Shown: positions 16,629 to 33,527 of the stretch, piece after piece
Layout: every line of letters begins with the position of its first letter
Numbering within the stretch: position 1 is the first letter of the stretch
Assembly (NCBI GenBank): GCA_001784115.1
Contig: MFPD01000001.1
Location: forward strand, 1-51,444
Direction: 5' to 3'
DNA length: 51,444 nt
From: Candidatus Levybacteria bacterium RIFCSPLOWO2_02_FULL_37_18
GTDB lineage: Bacteria > Patescibacteriota > Microgenomatia > Levybacterales > UBA12049
The notes under the pieces: model-generated
Told to the model about the DNA's origin: nothing
The model's input: only the letters and a program-made list of their open reading frames with translations
Databases searched by the model: none
Program-made: the position numbers and the translations under genes

Positions 16629-17138
16629 TTAACCGTCGATGGGTTCTTGGGTTAAACAGCCGGGGATTGGATTTTTTTCTTCGTACAGCGTTTGATCACC
16701 AATATAATCTTCCCAGGATTTAAAAAGGCTGTTAATTTTTTTCAAAGTATCCTCTTTAATACTTTCATCAAGATATGCAAAAGGACAAACGTGCTGAGGT
16801 TTCTGGCCGCCTCTTAAAATTCCAATCTCCATCGTACCAAATCCAGGAGGCGCTCCGCGATTAAAATTACTCACCTCTCCAACTATTTGGCCGGCCGTAA
16901 CTACATCTCCTACCTTAGCCCTCGGATTTATTAAGTGTTCTGTTTCGTAAATCCACTCCTGCATTTTGCCATCGGTTGTAACCTGAATTGAATAATCACC
17001 ACTCCAAAGAGTTGGCATCGCGGCAACAACCCCGTCTACCAAAGATCTGACTGGGGTACCTAAAGGAACAACAAAAGTTGGTTGGGGACTGGATTTCTCC
17101 ATCTTTGACCGGTACCCATATAACTGAATTTGAGCCAT
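16629..17138 (-). CDS. M23-like peptidase domain protein
   Basis: FVVPLGTPVRSLVDGVVAAMPTLWSGDYSIQVTTDG...VGDVVTAGQIVGEVSN pattern. Confidence 0.55.
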   Translation of the reverse strand: MAQIQLYGYRSKMEKSSPQPTFVVPLGTPVRSLVDGVVAAMPTLWSGDYSIQVTTDGKMQEWIYETEHLINPRAKVGDVVTAGQIVGEVSNFNRGAPPGFGTMEIGILRGGQKPQHVCPFAYLDESIKEDTLKKINSLFKSWEDYIGDQTLYEEKNPIPGCLTQEPIDG

Positions 17139-17174
17139 TAAAGCTAGTTGACTTTCAAGCTAAAATGATAAACA

Positions 17175-17363
17175 ATGTTAAATATAACTAATATGACAGA
17201 AGAACAGTATTATTCAATCGAAGAAGTAGCTAAGATGTTAAAAGTTGCTTACTTAACTGTATACCGCTGGATACGGTCTGGTAAATTAACAGCCTATAAA
17301 GCTGGCAAGCAGTACAGGATAAAAAAGGAGGATTTAGACAACTTCCTAAATAACAAAAAATAA
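17175..17363 (+). CDS. Excisionase/MerR-type helix-turn-helix DNA-binding protein
   Basis: YYSIEEVAKMLKVAYLTVYRWIRSGKLTAYKAGKQYRIKKEDLDNFL. Confidence 0.9.
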   Translation: MLNITNMTEEQYYSIEEVAKMLKVAYLTVYRWIRSGKLTAYKAGKQYRIKKEDLDNFLNNKK

Positions 17364-17366
17364 AAT

Positions 17367-18515
17367 ATGAGCTACATGTCAGTAGATAAATTACAACAAA
17401 CTCTCGCTCAAAAAGTCTTCCATTATGCTAAGGATTCCAAAAAAGCGGCAGGAAGAGCATTGGGAACTCTGGTTGAGATAATTACTTTTTATCTTCTCAA
17501 AGACTGGGGTGTAGAAAATAACGTAAGAATTGAGAAGGGCTTAATCGAGTATAGAAATGCTGCAATTTCGCATAATGTTGAATATACTTTGCACCCGACA
17601 GTAAATGTTATCCAATTAACACTTGCTAAGACTCTGCCAATAACATCATCAAAGATATTTTTAGCAATCCAAAGGCTCAATTCTCTTAATCTTCAAGGCT
17701 ACATAAAAATCAACTCTACATTACTGTCAACAGCCAATACTGTAAAAAATTCTTGCGTAATTGCACGCAACCAGAATAAAGCATTAGTAGCTGTTCTTAT
17801 AAAGAATAATAACCAGTCGGTTAGGGTTGCAGTAATTGAACAGTATGAAAAACCATTCGCTATGGTAGAGTGCAAAAGAGTTGGTATAGAAGAAGGAAAT
17901 AAGAAAGGCCCACAGACGATTGAAAAAGCCAAACAAGGTGCGTATGTAGCGAGAACCGTTTCGTCTTTACAAAAGGTTAGGAATTACGATGGAACATTAT
18001 TTGGCCTACTCCCTATTGGGCAAGATGATTTTCGCTTTGATAAATACGATGAACTCTTAAAGGAAATAATTTCTACCGACAATTTAACAATCTATAAGGA
18101 CTTTATTCTTACCATTGGGGTAGTCAGTAATCACGGAAATTGGTTTACTTCTGATAATCCAAATAAGGAACTTGTCGTTTTAAGAGATGCCTACGATTGG
18201 CTCCTTTTTCTTACTGATAATGGAATAGCAACATTTATTGATGAGCTTCTACTTAATCCTAAAAAGGAATATGTGCCCGCACAAAAAGCCTTCCTCGCTA
18301 GTTATGCCAGCGACAACAATTCAGTAAAGAAAGTTGGTAAAAACCAGTTCACAAAAACACAAATCAATATGAAAGCAGACCAAGCACTACAAGAGTATTT
18401 TAGAAGTAATAGAGAAAGAATAGCAAAGTGGCTAAATATCATTACCCCAACAGAAGTAACTATTGACGAACTTAGAAAACAACTTACTAAGTTATCTAAT
18501 AAAAAATGGGCTTAA
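17367..18515 (+). CDS. Putative type II restriction endonuclease (PD-(D/E)XK)
   Basis: PFAMVECKRVGIEEGNKKGPQTIEKAKQGAYVAR resembles a D/ExK core; followed directly by an adenine methyltransferase. Confidence 0.72.
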   Translation: MSYMSVDKLQQTLAQKVFHYAKDSKKAAGRALGTLVEIITFYLLKDWGVENNVRIEKGLIEYRNAAISHNVEYTLHPTVNVIQLTLAKTLPITSSKIFLAIQRLNSLNLQGYIKINSTLLSTANTVKNSCVIARNQNKALVAVLIKNNNQSVRVAVIEQYEKPFAMVECKRVGIEEGNKKGPQTIEKAKQGAYVARTVSSLQKVRNYDGTLFGLLPIGQDDFRFDKYDELLKEIISTDNLTIYKDFILTIGVVSNHGNWFTSDNPNKELVVLRDAYDWLLFLTDNGIATFIDELLLNPKKEYVPAQKAFLASYASDNNSVKKVGKNQFTKTQINMKADQALQEYFRSNRERIAKWLNIITPTEVTIDELRKQLTKLSNKKWA

Positions 18516-18516
18516 T

Positions 18517-19107
18517 ATGACAGCTGGAAGAAAAATAAATTCTGATAGTCAAGATTGGTGTACACCGCCAAAGTATGTAAACGCTGTAAGACGGTTTTTT
18601 GGCGAGATATACCTTGACCCTTGTTCTAATACAAAATCCATTGTCCATGCAAAAACCGAGTATATGTTGCTTGAAATAGATGGCTTAAAGGCCTCATGGG
18701 ACTTCTCAACAATTTATGTTAATCCGCCTTACGGTATAGATAAAATTAGACGCACATCAATAATTGACTGGATAAGAAAATGTGCACACGCATACAATGC
18801 TTATAAAAGTGAGGTTCTTGCTCTAATTCCAGTTGCAGTAAACACACGCCATTGGAAGCAATATGTTTTCGGACAAGCTAATAGTATATGTTTTTTAGCA
18901 GATACTAGGTTGAAGTTTATAAACGGAACTAACGATAAGGGTGCTCCGATGGCATGCGCTATGGTGTACTGGGGTAAAGATGAGGAGCGATTTTACGAAC
19001 ATTTCTCGCAACATGGAGCTGTAGTTAATATTACTAATCTTAAAAAGGCAGATTGGATTTCTCCTGACTTAAAGACTAATCAAGTTAAACTTTTTGATGA
19101 AAAATGA
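18517..19107 (+). CDS. Phage-type DNA N-6-adenine methyltransferase (Dam-like)
   Basis: DWCTPPKYVNAVRRFFGEIYLDPCSN...IYVNPPYG (NPPY motif); start placed at MTAGRK. Confidence 0.88.
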   Translation: MTAGRKINSDSQDWCTPPKYVNAVRRFFGEIYLDPCSNTKSIVHAKTEYMLLEIDGLKASWDFSTIYVNPPYGIDKIRRTSIIDWIRKCAHAYNAYKSEVLALIPVAVNTRHWKQYVFGQANSICFLADTRLKFINGTNDKGAPMACAMVYWGKDEERFYEHFSQHGAVVNITNLKKADWISPDLKTNQVKLFDEK

Positions 19108-19145
19108 AAGCAATAATTTTAGCTAGAGTTTCAATAGTTCTATGA
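19104..19145 (+). pseudogene. Vestigial serine recombinase 5' end (MKAIILARVSIVL*)
   Basis: 27/33 nt identity to the recombinase start at 19864, differences mostly in third codon positions. Confidence 0.8.
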
Positions 19146-19867
19146 ACAAGTTCAAAACAGCTGCCATCTCAATACTGACAGAAGTAAATAAGCCTTTACA
19201 TTACAAGGAAATTACGCGTCTTGCTTTAGAAAAAGGAGTATTGGAAACAGAAGGTGCAACTCCTGATGCGTCTATGAACGCCCAGATAATAACTGATATC
19301 AAACGTAAAGGAAAGCAGTCTACCTTTATCAAAACAGCTCCCTCAACCTACGCTCTTAATCCTGATAAGCCACGAACAAAAGAAGAACCAGAAGAAGCTC
19401 AAGAAGAAGAAAAATTAGCCGTTGATAGTGGCTACATCGGCAAGGCAGGCGAATACTTAGTTTGTAGCGAGCTACTTTTTAGAGGCTTTAACGCCAGCAT
19501 AATGAGCGTTGATATAGGTGTAGATATTGTAGCCACAAGAGAAAATCGCCTCTATGGAATACAGGTAAAAACCGCACGACTTAACAAGTTTAATACCTAT
19601 GTTTTTGACGTTCGCAAGGTTTCCTTTGAAAGACATAATAGCGGAAGCACTTTTTATATCTTCGTGCTTCATAGCGAGAAGAAAACTAATTTCCTTATCC
19701 TTCCCTACTTTGAAATTGAAAAGAAAGTTCATGATAAGGCAATCTTGGAGGTTGGGCAGGGCTTGCGTTATCGCATAAACATAAAATTGCGTAACAACAG
19801 TGTTTACCTTGGAACCCTAGACCACGAGATGAATTACTTTTTGAATAATTGGTCTGTACTAAAATGA
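19142..19867 (+). CDS. HARE-HTH domain plus PD-(D/E)XK nuclease-like protein
   Basis: N-terminal HB1/ASXL/restriction endonuclease HTH (FKTAAISILTEVNKPLHYKEITRLALEKGVL); C-terminal GKAGEYLVCSELLFRGF...DIGVDIVATRENRLYGIQVKTA. Confidence 0.75.
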   Translation: MNKFKTAAISILTEVNKPLHYKEITRLALEKGVLETEGATPDASMNAQIITDIKRKGKQSTFIKTAPSTYALNPDKPRTKEEPEEAQEEEKLAVDSGYIGKAGEYLVCSELLFRGFNASIMSVDIGVDIVATRENRLYGIQVKTARLNKFNTYVFDVRKVSFERHNSGSTFYIFVLHSEKKTNFLILPYFEIEKKVHDKAILEVGQGLRYRINIKLRNNSVYLGTLDHEMNYFLNNWSVLK

Positions 19868-21427
19868 AAGCGATAATCATAGCCAGAGTATCAACAGAAG
19901 AACAAAAAGACGCAGGAAATTCCCTGCCAGCTCAGACAGTCCGTCTTGAAAACTATTGCGAGAGAAAAAGTTACCCGATTATCAAAAAATTCAGCTTTGA
20001 CGAAAGTGCCTATAAAGACAATCGGACAGAATTTGACCGTATTTTGGACTACATTATCGGGCTAAAAGAAAAAATAGCTGTTTGTTTTGATAAGGTAGAC
20101 AGATTGTCCCGCAATATCTTTGATAAACGGGTATCCCTACTCTATGAAAAAGCCTTAAAAGACGAGGTAGAACTCCACTTTGTATCAGATGGTCAAGTCA
20201 TCAATAGCCAACTATCAGCCGTTGAGAAGCTTAATTTTAGTATGAGCCTTGGACTTGCCAAATACTTTTCTGACGCAATAAGCGACAATGTAAAGCGGGC
20301 CCACAAGAGCAAATGCTTAGAAGCGGTATATGGCCTGGAAAAGCCCCTTACGGCTACCGCAACATAGATAGAGGACGGCAGTAAGTGGATTGTAATTGAG
20401 CCAATGGAAGCCCAAGTAGTTGAAAAAATGTATGAGTGGTATTCAACAAGTAGTTACTCAATGAACGAGATAAGAGCCGAGCTTAAAAAAGTGTTAAATG
20501 TTGATTTTTCAAAGGGCTATATTGACGCAATCCTTAAAAACCCCTTTTACTGCGGGACGATGGTCTACAACGAAAAAGAATATCCTCACTATTACGACAG
20601 AATAATTACCCAAGGGCTTTTTGATAAAGTCCAAGAGATTAAAGCTGGACACCACAAAAAACACTTCAAATACGCTGGCTTACCCTTCTTATACCGATGC
20701 TTAATCAAATGTGCTGATTGCGGTTGTCTGATAACCCCTGAAAGGAAAATTAAGAAAAGCGGTAAGACCTATCACTACTACCACTGCACCCAATACAACG
20801 GCAAGCACGGGGCAGAATGGTTGACAGAGGACCGACCTAACTAAACAGTTCTCGGCAGTCTTTGACAAGCTACAAATGCCACAAGAAGCCGTAGATGATA
20901 TTGTTGAAGCACTACAGACCAACCATAAGCACAAATCAGATTTTTACCACGACTTGCTAAATCGCTATCAGACTGAACACCAAAAATACGAGACAGGCAT
21001 TGAGAAAGCCTATGATGACTATCTGCTCGGTAGTATTACTAAGGACAAGTATGAGGAAAAACGAAAAGAGTAGCGGGCAAAACAGAAAGAAATTACCAAG
21101 AAAATTGGCAAACTAAACTATGCCGATGAGGAATACTATTTGACCTCAGAATACCTGTTAAAACTGGCTTCTAACGCAGGAAAATTGTTTGAGAGTTCTG
21201 AAGTTCACGAAAAACGACTACTTTTGAATATGGCACTTCAGAACTTAGAGCTAAAGGGCAAAATAGCCCGATACGACTGGACAAATCCCTTTGACAAGAT
21301 AGCTTTTTACGCCTCTCGTCAAGCCTGGCTCGCCCGATGGGATGATTTCTACAAGTCCAACTGGTTAGAAATTATAGACTATCCAGAGGTTGTAATGCAA
21401 CAAAGCCAACAATTATTGCAAATTTAG
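19864..21427 (+). pseudogene. Large serine recombinase, disrupted by frameshifts and an in-frame stop
   Basis: MKAIIIARVSTEEQKDAGNSLPAQ resolvase start; split across ORFs 19849-20367, 20404-20844, 20876-21073, 21140-21427; frame changes near 20340-20400 and 20830; TAG at 21071-21073. Confidence 0.85.
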
Positions 21428-21436
21428 CTTGATTGT

Positions 21437-22711
21437 CTATAAGTTGGAATCTTCATCCTCTGAAGCAGAGGGGCTAGGACTTAATGAAGGAAAAGGACTG
21501 ACCAATGGTGATGCCGATTCAGAAGCAGTTGGATTAAATACGGGAACAGTTCCTTGACCTGCTAGGGTGGCATTGCCAAGCATAGAAGTTCCCATTGAAA
21601 ACATTGGATAATTACTCATAGTTTGTCTTGGAATGTGCTCTATCTTTAGGATTTTACTTTGAGCAAGGTTTATTTTTCCATCTGGATTTATAGGCGTTTC
21701 CCACATTACCTTAAACTCAAGAACATGTTCTCCTTTATTATCATAACCTCCAGCTAATGCAGTAGATTTAGTTTCCGCATTTTCAAAGATTTGGCGATAT
21801 ATTATTGAAGATTCCCATTGATATTTGTTACTTTCTTCTTTTATAAATACTGGCTTACTTACTCGATACTCTGGTTCTGATACAGGAATCCAATTTTCTT
21901 TTCCGCCTTGCCATACTAATACTCCATAATAAAGATCATGCTGTATTTTTGGGTCTCCAAATAAAGTAGGATATGTTTCTATAAATTTTCTTGGAAGTTC
22001 TTCTCTATAAAAAAGAGAATTTTTATCAAGTGGTTTATAGAAAGAGTTTTCTGCCTCTTTGGTAGTTTCTTCTACTAGTTTATTACTATTTTTTAATAAA
22101 TGTAACCTTAGAGCCGATTCAAAATCAGGTACAGATTGAAAAACCTTGAAATTTCCATATCTTTTAGTTTTAGATTTTATATAGTCAGAAAGCAAACCAT
22201 CATTGCATAAGAATACAACATTTGAATTTTTATATAATCGAGGTAAATGATCCAATACTGTTTCTGCAATGATAAGGTCTTTGAATCCCTTCTCTTTATC
22301 TTTCTCTGGACTAAATGGGGGCAGTTTGTATACTGCTTTCTTAACAATATTTTTCCAAATAATTTTGGTGTACGGCGTGGCTAAAGTTTCAATTTTATTT
22401 GCATGAAAAGCATTTTCGACAATTCTAAAAATTTGATTTTCACTTTTTTTAATCTTAGGAACTTTGTATTGCTTCAATAATTCATATAAATTTTTACTGG
22501 TATTTTCATATTTTTGCTTTAACTCTAAAAAATCATCCAAAAAATGTTTTTTTGATTCTTCAAGGACTATCTCAGGAACATAAAATCTGATGATAACTTT
22601 TTCACCGCCAATAAAATTGGCTATCAAGGTAGCCACTTCTTTCCTTATTGGTTTGCCATAAAGGACGCTGGATTCAATAATTACATTATATTTTAGTTTT
22701 CTTTTTTTCAT
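21437..22711 (-). CDS. PIN-like domain protein (DUF4935-type) with Ser/Pro-rich acidic tail
   Basis: KYNVIIESSVLYGKP...FYVPEIVLEESKKHF...FKDLIIAETVLDHL...NVVFLCNDGLLSDYIK. Confidence 0.6.
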   Translation of the reverse strand: MKKRKLKYNVIIESSVLYGKPIRKEVATLIANFIGGEKVIIRFYVPEIVLEESKKHFLDDFLELKQKYENTSKNLYELLKQYKVPKIKKSENQIFRIVENAFHANKIETLATPYTKIIWKNIVKKAVYKLPPFSPEKDKEKGFKDLIIAETVLDHLPRLYKNSNVVFLCNDGLLSDYIKSKTKRYGNFKVFQSVPDFESALRLHLLKNSNKLVEETTKEAENSFYKPLDKNSLFYREELPRKFIETYPTLFGDPKIQHDLYYGVLVWQGGKENWIPVSEPEYRVSKPVFIKEESNKYQWESSIIYRQIFENAETKSTALAGGYDNKGEHVLEFKVMWETPINPDGKINLAQSKILKIEHIPRQTMSNYPMFSMGTSMLGNATLAGQGTVPVFNPTASESASPLVSPFPSLSPSPSASEDEDSNL

Positions 22712-27265: not shown

Positions 27266-27658
27266 ATGACACTAATAAAGATAGGCGAAGCAGCTAAAAT
27301 ATTAGGAGTAAATAAAAAAACTCTGATGAGATGGGATCAGTCTGGTTTATTTCCTGCAAAACGAGAACAAGTAAGCAATATTAGGGTTTATGACAAAGCT
27401 ATAGTTGAAAAAGCTAATAAATGGCTTGATTTTAGAAAAAGAGAGAAAGAACATTTGGATAAATTGGCTGGAATAAATAAAAAACGAGATAAATTTATAC
27501 CAATTATTCCACTTGGTTCTTCTTCTAATCCTCAAGTTCATTCATACAAAGAAATGAAAAAGGTATATGGGGAATACGATGATTGGAAAAAGAAATATGA
27601 TGAGCTTCAAAAAGAAGATGCAGAGTTTGAAGGTTTTTATAGGAGGCTTAAAAAATGA
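27266..27658 (+). CDS. MerR-type HTH protein adjacent to serine recombinase (candidate recombination directionality factor)
   Basis: MTLIKIGEAAKILGVNKKTLMRWDQSGLFPAKR; stop overlaps the recombinase ATG (ATGA). Confidence 0.8.
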   Translation: MTLIKIGEAAKILGVNKKTLMRWDQSGLFPAKREQVSNIRVYDKAIVEKANKWLDFRKREKEHLDKLAGINKKRDKFIPIIPLGSSSNPQVHSYKEMKKVYGEYDDWKKKYDELQKEDAEFEGFYRRLKK

Positions 27659-29244
27659 AAGCAGTATTATTCTGCAGAGTTAGCTCTAAAGAGCAAGAAG
27701 AAACTGGCTATTCTTTACCGGCACAAGAAAAATATCTTAGAGATTATGCACAAAAGAATAAATTTAATGTTGAAAAAGTGTTTGCTGTTTCAGAGTCTGC
27801 AAGCGGAAAAATTCAGCGTAAAGTTTTTAATGAAATGGTTACTTATATTAGAAAAAACAATATTGCTGTAATTATTGTTGAAACTACAGATCGCTTAACA
27901 AGAAATTTTGCCGATGTTCCAACGATTGACAAGTGGGTTTTAGAAGATGAAAATAATCAAATTCATCTAGCAAAAGAAGGTTGTATTTTGAATAAAAATT
28001 CTAAATCCCACGAATGGTTTATGTGGAGAGTAAAGGTTGCAACCGCAGAGTATTATGTCCGGCTTCTTTCCGAAAATGTTAAAAAAGGACAGAAGGAAAA
28101 AATAGCTCAAGGTTGGCTTCCAACAAAACCGCCACTTGGATATAAAACTGTAGGAGAAAAAGGGCATAAAACTCACATAATTGATATAGAAAAAGCACCT
28201 TTTGTTAAAAGAATGTTTAGTTTATATGCAACAAGAAATTATTCCTTAAAAAGTCTTACGGAATTGGTGTATAAAGAAGGTTTAAGAAATGAAGCTGGTA
28301 ATAAAATAGTAAAAAGTAGGATCCACCAATATCTTTCAGACCCTTTTTATATTGGCAAAATTAGATGGAACGGAGAACTTCATGACGGAAATCAAGAAAC
28401 TTTTATAGATGAAGATACTTTTAATAAAGTTCAAGAAATTTTACATTCTAAAGGTACTCCGAAATACAGAAAACACGCTTATTTATTTCAAAGGATTTTC
28501 CTTTGTGGGGAGTGTGGAGGCACAATTACATGGGAAGAACATAAAAACATCATCTATGGGCATTGCAACCTCTATAAAGACTGCTTTCAGAAGGCTTGGT
28601 ATACAGAGGAAAGCGTAGGAAATTTGTTAGCAGAAAAGCTTATTAAATTACAAATTAAGAACAAAAGAATTGTTGATTGGATAAGAAAGGCCTTAAAAGA
28701 AGGACATCAAGATAAAATTGTTTATCATTCTACTTCCTTAGATGAATTACGCCAAAGGGGAACACAGCTAAATAAAAGACTTGAAAAAATGTATGAAGAT
28801 AAAATTGACGAAAAAATTACGGAAGCATTTTATAACACTAAAGCCAAAGAATATAAGGAAGAGTTAAAAGAAATAGGAAAATCTATTCAAAAACACAACA
28901 ACGCTAATGAGAAATATTATGAACTAGGCTCTAATCTTTATGAATTATCTCAAAGAGCAAGCTCTATTTACCAAAAAGCAAAAAAAGATGATAAAAGACT
29001 GCTTGTAAATCTTGTTTTTTCAGAACTTTACCTAAAAGATGGAAAACTTGTTGCTAATTATTCAAAAGCCTTTGAGTTACTTTCTGAGCTTGCAGAACTT
29101 ACAAATAGTTCGAAAATGCCGGAAAATGAAAAAATAGTGGCAAGGATTTTCGAACCGAAGGAAAAGCCTGATATAACAATCCAAATACCTAATTCTTACC
29201 TTCACCATCCTATTCTGCTCCGGCGAGAGGATTCGAACCTCTAA
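27655..29244 (+). CDS. Large serine recombinase/integrase
   Basis: MKAVLFCRVSSKEQEETGYSLPAQ catalytic Ser motif, recombinase domain, zinc ribbon FLCGECGGTITWEEH...C, coiled-coil C-terminus; C-terminal residues encoded inside the tRNA. Confidence 0.93.
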   Translation: MKAVLFCRVSSKEQEETGYSLPAQEKYLRDYAQKNKFNVEKVFAVSESASGKIQRKVFNEMVTYIRKNNIAVIIVETTDRLTRNFADVPTIDKWVLEDENNQIHLAKEGCILNKNSKSHEWFMWRVKVATAEYYVRLLSENVKKGQKEKIAQGWLPTKPPLGYKTVGEKGHKTHIIDIEKAPFVKRMFSLYATRNYSLKSLTELVYKEGLRNEAGNKIVKSRIHQYLSDPFYIGKIRWNGELHDGNQETFIDEDTFNKVQEILHSKGTPKYRKHAYLFQRIFLCGECGGTITWEEHKNIIYGHCNLYKDCFQKAWYTEESVGNLLAEKLIKLQIKNKRIVDWIRKALKEGHQDKIVYHSTSLDELRQRGTQLNKRLEKMYEDKIDEKITEAFYNTKAKEYKEELKEIGKSIQKHNNANEKYYELGSNLYELSQRASSIYQKAKKDDKRLLVNLVFSELYLKDGKLVANYSKAFELLSELAELTNSSKMPENEKIVARIFEPKEKPDITIQIPNSYLHHPILLRREDSNL

Positions 29245-29289
29245 CCTCGAAGTTAACAGCTTCTTGCTCTACCATTGAGCTACACCGGA
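29218..29289 (-). tRNA. tRNA-Asn (GTT)
   Basis: TCCGGTG/CGCCGGA acceptor, GCTC/GAGC D-arm, anticodon loop CTGTTAA, AGAGG-TTCGAAT-CCTCT T-arm; no encoded CCA; terminal anticodon-stem pair is A.G. Confidence 0.9.
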
Positions 29290-30629: not shown

Positions 30630-33527
30630 TTAATTTTTTAAAAGTGATACAAGAGTAGATAGTTTTTCTTCTTCAACGTTTCCGCTTAACTCACGTATCT
30701 GATTTCGTACATATTCGTGTCTGATATCTTTTGCGGTTCTTTCTATTTCCGAAAGATGATAGGTTATGTCTGTAAATTTAGGAATGGGAAAAAGATAACA
30801 CGTGTCAAAAGAAGGTAGTAATTCTTTCGGAAGCGATTTTGTAAATTCTTCAAGTATGTATATCTCTTTTTTTTGGAAATACAACCGCAAGCAATCTAAC
30901 AATTTTTGTAAGGAAGAAACAGTAAATGTAATCTGCGCTTTATATGGTTCAATGCGTTTGAGTCCTTCGTATGGATTTGAAAGTTGAACAATCAAAGCAA
31001 CTAAGTATTCTTCTAACATTTCTTCTCTATTTTTTCTCACTTTTTGCTCAAAAGCAACCTGCTGTTTTTCTGATCCTTGTTTTTCAAATCGGGATAATTC
31101 CCTACCAATACTTTCATACGATGTAGCCAGCTCTTGGCTCATTTTCCGGATATAATGCTCTTTAACAATTTCATTTTGTATGCTGGCAATAAATGGTAAA
31201 AATTCGTCGGCTATTTTTCGCTTTCCCTCAGCGGTATGTTTGTCATACGTTTTTAAGGCCTTTTCGAGTAAAAAATCATAAACAGAAACATCGTGTTTTA
31301 TTGCTTGCTTAAATTCAAAAGGGTTATTTCGTATTGATTCATCCGCATCTTTTCCACTGACAATTACCACAACGGTAATCGTAAGCCCTTTTTTCTCGAG
31401 TATCGGAAGACTCCTGGCAACTGCTTGTTGTCCTGCCGAATCCATATCAAAACACAAAGATACTTTTGATGCAAAACGAGACACAAGAGCCACCTGGTTT
31501 TCAGTTAAAGCTGTTCCTTTAACTGCAATCACATTTTTTATCCCTTCTTTAAAACAAGAAATAACATCAAATTCTCCCTCAACAATAAGTGCCCTGTCCT
31601 GTTTTTTTATTTCTTCTTTTGCGCTGTGAATGCCAAAAAAATGACTGCCTTTGTGATATATAATCGTATCTTTTGTGTTAACATATTTAGGACCGAAACT
31701 CTCTCCCAGAGACCTGCCGGAGAATCCAACCACATTCCCTCTTGTGTCACTCAGGGGAAACATAATTCTGTCTTTAAAAAAATCAACACAATCTCTTCCC
31801 CGTCTATAAGAAAGTCCCGCTTCTATAAGGTCGTCTGCTTTAAATTGCTTTTTATTAATAAGGTAAGAAGAAAGTGCGTTGTTTGCCGGAGAAAACCCTA
31901 TCATAAATGTTTTTATAAGAGGAAGCGTTACACCGCGTTTTTCAAGATATGCTAAAGCTTTTTTTCCGGCCGGATGCTTTGTTAGTACGAAATGGAAAAA
32001 TTCGTTTGCTAAATGATTAACTTCGTAAAGTCTTTCTTTTTTGGAAGAAACGCCTCTATTAAATTTTTCTCTTACAAGCTCTACTCCTGCTTTTTTTGCC
32101 AAGATAGATAAGCTTTCCGGAAATTCAATATTTTCATACTCCATTAAAAAGGTAAATGCGTCTCCTCCTTTCCCACAGTTAGATACTGCGAAATGAGATG
32201 CTACGTAAGAGTGATCACCATTAACTGTTAGGTTATAGACTGGACCTTTGTATGCCCTGCTAGTAACCTTTTCAACCGGAAGCAACCAATACCTTACCCC
32301 GTCCTTATGGTATACCAAGTCATATTTTAATCTAGCCTCATCAGACCAAATGACAGTATAGGATTCTTTGTGGTCTACACCATTTCTATCCACTTCACTT
32401 TTACCTACACTTAAAGAGGGAAAAACTTCTAGGCGTAATAATATATCAATTAATTGCTCGCCTAATACTTTTGACACTGTAGTTATTGATCTATGAGTTT
32501 TTGAAGACTTATTAGCAAGATATTGTGTACCATCTCCTTTATGAATTGCATTCAAAAGAATTTTCTGTAAATGGGATGGGGTTTCTTGAAATATAAACGG
32601 AATATGTTTGTTTGTTGCACCCTTACCGCAAAGATTCTCAAATGCATTTGCCAAGAAAGCATGACATGCAGTAACCTCAATTCCAGTCTTATCTCCTGAA
32701 GGCCGACGATAAATGGATGCTTTGACCTTAAAAATCTTGTATATCAGCTCAACTATTTCTTTAGCAAAATCTTCTTCATTATTACCTAAACTAAAACGAA
32801 TGTACGCGCGATGATTGCTGCCTTCAGCAATCCAATAGCCTAGTAGTTTAAGAAAATCTTCATTTACCGATACTGTTGGTAACGCAGTAGGTTGAGGACC
32901 AAACCTGGAATGTTTCGTTACATACTCATTCAGATCTAATGTTACAACGGGAGTCACTCTATCGTTCAAAGGATAAAGCAACAAATCACCAGGCATAAGA
33001 TCTCTAGCCTCAAATTCTTGAATTGGCAACCACTTGTTAGTTTTCTTAAAGTAGTATTCAGGATTATTAACTAGGTATTTTAAATATTTTTGATACCTCT
33101 TAGCAAAATATTTAAACTTCACTTCATGCTTTGATGTAGATCTTACGACGAATACATGATGATCTCCTGTAAGAGAAACTGATCTGCGAATTTTTCTTGT
33201 TATTATCTTAATAAGATCTCCAGAGTAATTACGAGTATGGACCGCAAGCACTTTACGATACTCTCCATTACCAGAAACTACAAATTCATTCTCTGCAACA
33301 GTTTGTATTGGATGATAACCAAATGGAGTTTTAATTAGTTCTCCTGGAGGAAAACACCCAAAGCAATGCCAGATTTGCCGCTCGGGGGATACAACAAATG
33401 AAGGAGTTTTTTCGCTATGAAATGGACACGTTGTAGTAAAATTCCTGCCTGTTTTTTTAAGCGTTAAGTATTCAGAAATAAGAGCGATTAAATCTATTTT
33501 TTCTCTGACTTGTGATACTTGATCCAT
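30630..33527 (-). CDS. dnaG: DNA primase with in-frame intein
   Basis: CPFHSEKTPSF...WHCFG[intein]CGKGGDAFTFLMEYE zinc finger; TOPRIM IVEGEFDVIS; YHKGSHFFGI. Confidence 0.95.
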   Translation of the reverse strand: MDQVSQVREKIDLIALISEYLTLKKTGRNFTTTCPFHSEKTPSFVVSPERQIWHCFGCFPPGELIKTPFGYHPIQTVAENEFVVSGNGEYRKVLAVHTRNYSGDLIKIITRKIRRSVSLTGDHHVFVVRSTSKHEVKFKYFAKRYQKYLKYLVNNPEYYFKKTNKWLPIQEFEARDLMPGDLLLYPLNDRVTPVVTLDLNEYVTKHSRFGPQPTALPTVSVNEDFLKLLGYWIAEGSNHRAYIRFSLGNNEEDFAKEIVELIYKIFKVKASIYRRPSGDKTGIEVTACHAFLANAFENLCGKGATNKHIPFIFQETPSHLQKILLNAIHKGDGTQYLANKSSKTHRSITTVSKVLGEQLIDILLRLEVFPSLSVGKSEVDRNGVDHKESYTVIWSDEARLKYDLVYHKDGVRYWLLPVEKVTSRAYKGPVYNLTVNGDHSYVASHFAVSNCGKGGDAFTFLMEYENIEFPESLSILAKKAGVELVREKFNRGVSSKKERLYEVNHLANEFFHFVLTKHPAGKKALAYLEKRGVTLPLIKTFMIGFSPANNALSSYLINKKQFKADDLIEAGLSYRRGRDCVDFFKDRIMFPLSDTRGNVVGFSGRSLGESFGPKYVNTKDTIIYHKGSHFFGIHSAKEEIKKQDRALIVEGEFDVISCFKEGIKNVIAVKGTALTENQVALVSRFASKVSLCFDMDSAGQQAVARSLPILEKKGLTITVVVIVSGKDADESIRNNPFEFKQAIKHDVSVYDFLLEKALKTYDKHTAEGKRKIADEFLPFIASIQNEIVKEHYIRKMSQELATSYESIGRELSRFEKQGSEKQQVAFEQKVRKNREEMLEEYLVALIVQLSNPYEGLKRIEPYKAQITFTVSSLQKLLDCLRLYFQKKEIYILEEFTKSLPKELLPSFDTCYLFPIPKFTDITYHLSEIERTAKDIRHEYVRNQIRELSGNVEEEKLSTLVSLLKN
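32178..33356 (-). other. Intein (393 aa) with LAGLIDADG-type homing endonuclease
   Basis: N-terminal CFPPGELIKTPFG, block B TGDHHVFV, LAGLIDADG-like LLGYWIAEGSN and LLNAIHKGDGTQ, C-terminal VNGDHSYVASHFAVSN followed by Cys+1; removal restores WHCFGCGKGGD. Confidence 0.95.

What the first reader, a model, noticed from the sequence alone, without database searches (positions are those of the whole stretch)
19095..19880. Vestigial recombinase start codon region marks a cargo-swap junction
At 19104, overlapping the methyltransferase stop, ATGAAAGCAATAATTTTAGCTAGAGTTTCAATA encodes MKAIILARVSI and then hits a stop. It matches the recombinase start at 19864 (MKAIIIARVST) at 27/33 nt with mostly synonymous changes. 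At 19104, 19864 and 27655 an upstream cargo gene ends with AAAATGAAAGC, the stop overlapping the recombinase ATG. This suggests cargo modules (MTase, HARE nuclease, HTH) have been inserted or exchanged just upstream of, or into, the recombinase 5' end.
Basis: partly seen in the sequence, partly recalled or inferred. Interest (0 to 1): 0.65.

Follow-up and report, generated by a model that had tools for sequence, protein, structure and literature searches.

The report
Recombinase scar in a defence-gene slot
A 31-base leftover of a foreign recombinase gene between two defence genes shows that a small chromosome-integrating element of ultra-small bacteria was patched together from at least two related elements, whose restriction genes are swapped in one fixed slot just before the integrase gene.

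Summary
Window 19104-19134 matches the start of a foreign serine recombinase (Moranbacteria locus L094) at 31/31 nt. Shuffled sequence never exceeded 23/31. In 1.55 Mb of related loci it is the only recombinase start of its kind without a recombinase behind it.

The context is a family of about 7-9 kb integrating elements: rolling-circle Rep-like gene, excisionase-family HTH, cargo slot, large serine recombinase, then a tRNA 3' end (tRNA-Asn in 33 of 53). The slot between HTH and recombinase held 0-6.5 kb in 43 elements. It is empty in three and otherwise mostly carries restriction-modification genes. The HARE gene sits before a recombinase in another family's element behind an unrelated cargo gene, and homology begins exactly at its ATG. 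The window recombinase is also mosaic.

So the scar is a recombination junction. REase-MTase plus the tip of a foreign recombinase was joined to HARE-recombinase, most likely by recombination or deletion between related or tandem elements. The element is now dead. The exact donor and order of events are not shown. This is the only such scar found, so it records one event, not a general mechanism.

The parts
17117..17189 (+). 3' tip of the element's Rep-like gene (...EFEPLKLVDFQAKMINNVKYN), all that is left of the element's left half
   Evidence: nt homology to L041/L042/L043/L045/L090 begins at 17117-17129; the full-length gene in relatives is about 380 aa and folds like rolling-circle Rep proteins
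17175..17363 (+). HTH_17 / excisionase-family small protein, left border of the cargo slot
   Evidence: PF12728 E=1.4e-17; relative in L070 hits TIGR01764 excisionase family, 62 bits, cut-off 28.8; 84% aa to L043
17367..18515 (+). Putative restriction endonuclease (382 aa), cargo
   Evidence: No convincing family or PDB match; sits next to the same MTase type in IMG/VR contigs L155 and L158 at 50-52% identity; conserved ECKR motif. Nuclease role inferred
18517..19107 (+). Dam-type N6-adenine methyltransferase, cargo; stop overlaps the scar's ATG
   Evidence: PF05869 E=2.3e-15; native C-terminus KLFDEx* shared with L155
19104..19134 (+). Scar: first 31 nt of a foreign serine recombinase gene (MKAIILARVS)
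   Evidence: 31/31 nt to L094 start, 26/31 to 19864; null maximum 23/31
19135..19141 (+). 7-nt junction (TAGTTCT) between the scar and the HARE gene, origin unknown
   Evidence: Homology to L094 ends at 19134; homology to L054 starts at 19142
19142..19867 (+). HARE-HTH + PD-(D/E)XK-like nuclease gene, cargo; stop overlaps recombinase ATG
   Evidence: PF05066 E=2.2e-16, PF11645 weak; same gene in L054, 87.6% aa
19864..21337 (+). Large serine recombinase pseudogene, mosaic; catalytic-domain segment 20072-20316 of different ancestry
   Evidence: PF00239, PF07508; frame breaks; permutation test 0/20000
21323..21343 (+). Probable old right attachment site (TGGCTCGCCCGATGGGATGAT), the position where other elements enter tRNA-Asn
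   Evidence: Homology to L090/L124 ends at 21335-21337; TGGCTC is the tRNA 3' boundary in relatives; no tRNA here
27655..29244 (+). Recombinase of a second, intact element whose 3' end runs into tRNA-Asn
29217..29289 (-). tRNA-Asn(GTT), integration target
   Evidence: ARAGORN; same tRNA at the recombinase 3' end in 33 related loci

Best explanation
The segment is a recombination scar inside a mobile element. The element family integrates with a large serine recombinase at the 3' end of tRNA genes, mostly tRNA-Asn. It keeps one cargo slot between an excisionase-like HTH gene and the recombinase gene, in one co-directional run of tightly packed genes. Here an REase-MTase pair once stood directly before a recombinase of another lineage, its stop overlapping that recombinase's ATG. 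A later event cut that recombinase after codon 10 and joined it to a HARE-recombinase unit of a second element. It was either recombination between two elements in one cell, or deletion between two elements integrated in tandem. The result stacks two cargo modules in one slot with 31 nt of the first recombinase between them. Shown: the scar's origin as a recombinase start, the slot, independent movement of HARE, mosaicism of the recombinase, the element's later decay. Inferred: identity of the donor, order of events, homologous versus illegitimate joining.
For: Scar equals the L094 recombinase start at 31/31 nt, null maximum 23/31, and is unique in 1.55 Mb. HARE homology with L054 starts exactly at its ATG and runs into the recombinase, while L054's preceding cargo is unrelated. 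L090, the closest recombinase, has the same HTH and different cargo. Slot of 43 elements: 3 empty, 40 filled, 13 of 40 with the cargo stop overlapping the recombinase ATG. Cargo mostly R-M. Recombinase mosaic at 20072-20316, 0/20000 permutations. Tandem elements exist: L131 and the window itself. Other truncated recombinase pieces lie beside the HTH in L116, L121 and L133.
Against: No element with REase-MTase directly before an intact recombinase was found. The scar's assignment to the L094-type lineage rests on 31 nt; the Levybacteria locus L070 matches 28 of the first 33. The joint 19135-19141 has no obvious homology, so at least one step was not simple homologous recombination. Only one such scar is known. 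An assembly error cannot be fully excluded without reads.
Confidence: 0.8

Rival explanations
1. The HARE gene inserted into the 5' end of the resident recombinase and duplicated its first about 33 nt (target-site duplication or template slippage), leaving a vestigial first copy.
For: The two copies flank the HARE gene exactly; 27/33 identity.
Against: The copies differ at 5 of the first 31 nt, 4 in third codon positions, as expected of two coding alleles; the scar is identical to a foreign recombinase start instead. In L054 the same HARE-recombinase unit shows no duplication.
Confidence: 0.08
2. The 13-codon ORF is a functional leader: it overlaps the MTase stop and the HARE start with ATGA at both ends and so couples translation across the joint.
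For: ATGA overlaps at 19104-19107 and 19142-19145, the latter sharing the TGA stop with the HARE start; coupling by overlap is common in this slot.
Against: Not found in any other slot; given the two ATGs, the frame match has a one-in-three chance. It may still help expression as a by-product.
Confidence: 0.06
3. The recombinase start is an attachment site, and cargo modules integrate there by site-specific recombination.
For: Cargo always ends at or close to the recombinase ATG.
Against: Synonymous sites of recombinase starts vary freely between elements; the element's attachment site lies at the other end of the recombinase, at the tRNA.
Confidence: 0.02
4. Assembly chimera of two elements.
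For: The genome is assembled from 31 contigs and the recombinase has frame breaks.
Against: The two recombinase starts share no long exact repeat that an assembler would collapse; the HARE-recombinase side is confirmed by L054 and REase-MTase adjacency by L155 and L158.
Confidence: 0.04

Closest known systems
Staphylococcal cassette chromosome (SCC) elements with Ccr large serine recombinases
   Same: Large serine recombinase (L070 recombinase hits CcrB at 7e-20 and CcrA at 3e-12); site-specific integration; SCC elements often carry R-M cargo (own knowledge)
   Different: SCC inserts at rlmH and carries ccrAB/C complexes (own knowledge); here tRNA 3' ends, a Rep-like gene and an excisionase-like HTH; scores far below the Ccr cut-offs
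tRNA-integrating cargo islands (ICE/IME, tycheposons, satellite islands)
   Same: Integration at a tRNA 3' end, replication gene, exchangeable cargo, tandem accretion at one tRNA
   Different: Those mostly use tyrosine integrases (own knowledge); here serine recombinases; cargo confined to one gap between excisionase-like gene and integrase
Rolling-circle plasmids and inovirus-type replicons
   Same: The Rep-like protein's model matches a rolling-circle initiator of Geobacillus (4cij, E 2e-4, prob 1.00) and viral proteins including an inovirus G2P (E 1e-10 to 5e-7); L090 assembles as a 7.6-kb circle
   Different: No Pfam, NCBIfam or PHROGs match at usual thresholds; no virion genes recognised

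Membership tests
Large serine recombinases (resolvase/invertase superfamily) | N-terminal resolvase domain with catalytic Ser in the RVS motif | tested here: met
   PF00239 E=7e-18 (window, broken gene) and RVS in all 7 aligned relatives
Large serine recombinases (resolvase/invertase superfamily) | C-terminal Recombinase domain and zinc ribbon | tested here: met
   PF07508 E=1.1e-14; PF13408 E=1.3e-4, below its curated cut-off
SCC (staphylococcal cassette chromosome) | Integration at the 3' end of rlmH by Ccr | tested here: not met
   tRNA 3' end at the recombinase end in 53 of 65 loci; CcrB score 71 versus cut-off 900
tRNA-integrating mobile islands | Integrase 3' end adjacent to a tRNA 3' end | tested here: met
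   53 of 65 loci, always antisense to the recombinase, 33 tRNA-Asn
tRNA-integrating mobile islands | Copy of the tRNA 3' end at the far boundary | tested here: inconclusive
   Clear in L091 (18 nt exact) and L083; not above shuffles in 12 others; window element 1 has lost its left end
tRNA-integrating mobile islands | Circular excised form | tested here: inconclusive
   L090 has a 141-nt exact terminal repeat, consistent with a 7575-bp circle, but its integrated counterpart is unknown
Rolling-circle replicons | Rep of HUH or pT181 type with catalytic Tyr | tested here: inconclusive
   Fold match only; catalytic residue not assigned
Type II restriction-modification (window REase-MTase) | MTase and cognate REase adjacent | tested here: inconclusive
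   MTase is Dam family; its partner recurs next to it in L155 and L158 but the nuclease fold was not recognised

The most novel reading that the evidence does not exclude
The gap between the excisionase-like gene and the integrase is a dedicated docking slot in a CPR-wide family of tRNA-integrating serine-recombinase elements. R-M systems are routinely exchanged there by recombination inside the flanking backbone genes, chiefly the 5' part of the recombinase, which would make these elements a main carrier of restriction systems among ultra-small bacteria.
Probability: 0.35. Interest if true: 0.68.

Novelty: new variant of a known kind. Interest (0 to 1): 0.5.

Why it matters
CPR/Patescibacteria mostly lack CRISPR but carry R-M systems; how these spread is little described (PMC12455944 reports an R-M genomic island but names no integrase or recombinase). 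A recurring small element with one fixed R-M slot, an empty-slot form and a recombination scar gives a concrete, testable carrier and route of exchange. No description of this family was found in the papers searched, which is a limited library.

Tried and rejected
Attachment-site reading of the recombinase start: rejected, since synonymous sites vary. Conserved leader: rejected, unique in 1.55 Mb. Donor search: MTase in 73 family and 382 phylum genomes, REase in 8 + 46 genomes of two other classes (these small empty searches have no positive control), none found. IMG/VR: recombinase alignment and HARE gave no relatives; MTase and REase gave relatives in unrelated contexts. HARE in plasmids and REase in phages: no match. 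REase fold: model pLDDT 74, no PDB match. Old tRNA 3' copies near 17100, 21300-21500 and 25000: not above shuffles. Relatives of the 27242 MerR gene in 73 family genomes: none.

Full report
What is in the window. The window is contig C1 of a 1.1-Mb, 31-contig genome; several of its same-family relatives carry the name Candidatus Levybacteria/Levyibacteriota. Two serine-recombinase elements lie in a row. Element 1 (17117-21337) is HTH, putative REase, Dam-type MTase, the scar, a HARE-HTH/PD-(D/E)XK gene, and a recombinase broken by frameshifts and stops. Element 2 ends with an intact recombinase (27655-29244) that runs into a tRNA-Asn gene at 29217.

The scar. The 13-codon ORF at 19104 begins with 31 nt that equal, base for base, the start of a recombinase gene in a Moranbacteria contig (L094; 35/35 with the four bases before it, E about 3e-10). 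The neighbouring recombinase matches only 26 of these 31. Its leucine at codon 6 (MKAIILARVS) is common in Parcubacteria-type recombinases, whereas the Levybacteria-type ones near the window read MKAIIIARVS or similar. Shuffled windows never exceeded 23/31. A pattern search of 1.55 Mb of related loci found this as the only recombinase start of its kind with no recombinase behind it; L123 and L125 are recombinases with an early stop, and L090 runs off its contig end. It is therefore the tip of a former recombinase gene.

The element family. Five close relatives (73-79% aa in the N-terminal part) were found in the same family of genomes and 79 loci in a scan of one genome per species, from Levybacteria, many other CPR lineages, Dependentiae/Babeliales and a few odd bins. 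Levybacteria-type and Parcubacteria-type members share an order: small ORFs, often a SpoVG-like gene (PF04026), a Rep-like gene of about 380 aa, the HTH gene, cargo, recombinase. The HTH relative in L070 is in the excisionase family TIGR01764 above its cut-off. The Rep-like model matches a rolling-circle initiator in the PDB and viral proteins including an inovirus G2P. In 53 of 65 loci a tRNA gene begins within 120 nt of the recombinase end, always antisense, and in 33 it is tRNA-Asn. L091 keeps an exact 18-nt copy of the tRNA 3' end about 8 kb upstream. L090 carries a 141-nt exact terminal repeat and closes to a 7575-bp circle with all backbone genes.

The slot. In 43 elements the distance from the HTH stop to the recombinase ATG was 1-6518 nt. 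Three are empty (L100, L101, L119: 1-4 nt), and the first of two tandem elements in L131 is nearly so. Of 73 cargo proteins, 17 match N6/N4 methylase, 13 ResIII, 8 C5 methylase, and others named restriction enzymes (HpaII, HindIII, ThaI, BpuJI and so on). This is a slot for restriction-modification cargo.

Evidence of exchange. L054, from another family, has the same HARE gene (87.6% aa) before its recombinase, preceded by an unrelated type IIG gene; nucleotide homology with the window begins exactly at the HARE ATG and no scar is present. L090 has the closest recombinase (80%, 90% and 92% nt in three segments) with different cargo and no HARE. Within the recombinase, window and L090 agree at about 88% at first, 66-67% around 20072-20316 where the window is instead about 85% like L070, then about 92%. 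The segment is significant in 20,000 permutations. So both cargo and the conserved 5' half of the recombinase have recombined.

How the junction formed. The MTase keeps its native C-terminus, and its stop overlaps the scar's ATG exactly as in other cargo-recombinase joints. The simplest reading is that REase-MTase once stood before a recombinase of another lineage, that recombinase was cut at codon 10-11, and HARE plus its recombinase was joined on. Tandem elements occur (L131, this window), and pieces of recombinases survive beside the HTH in L116, L121 and L133, so deletion between tandem elements is a ready route; recombination between separate elements is the other. The data do not decide between them. 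The left flank (HTH) is of the local type, so the foreign part is bounded on both sides, which favours insertion of a module rather than one simple crossover.

Limits. The donor was not found. The lineage of the scar rests on 31 nt. The REase is named from its partner and motif only. No second scar was found, so the claim is one event in a slot that evidently exchanges cargo often. The element is now inactive: broken recombinase, missing left half.

Noticed in passing
L090 1-7716: A contig binned as Bacteroidota is a 7575-bp circle (141-nt terminal repeat) carrying the whole element with an R-M pair: likely an excised or free form, or a mis-binned CPR element.
   Followed up: partly
L075-L089, L123, L125, L139: Dependentiae/Babeliales and similar loci carry related recombinases (43-68% identical in the best segment) next to tRNA-Gln, Glu, Asp or Arg genes: large serine recombinases that consistently use tRNA 3' ends, with different tRNAs in different clades.
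   Followed up: partly
L109 5524-7620 and L122 5712-7616: The excisionase-like HTH is fused in frame to the first cargo gene (type III Mod-like by position), joining backbone and cargo in one protein.
   Followed up: no
L116, L121, L133 just left of the HTH gene: Truncated recombinase fragments (about residues 116-271 in L121) sit directly upstream of the HTH in three elements, possible traces of tandem insertion and deletion.
   Followed up: partly
window 30630-33527 (-): DnaG primase ORF looks interrupted within its zinc-finger region (WHCFGC...CGKGGDAF) by an intein-like insert of a few hundred residues.
   Followed up: no
L123 10001 and L125 6195: Two near-identical recombinases from one bin read TAG at codon 24 within an otherwise conserved N-terminus; pseudogene or recoding not checked.
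   Followed up: no
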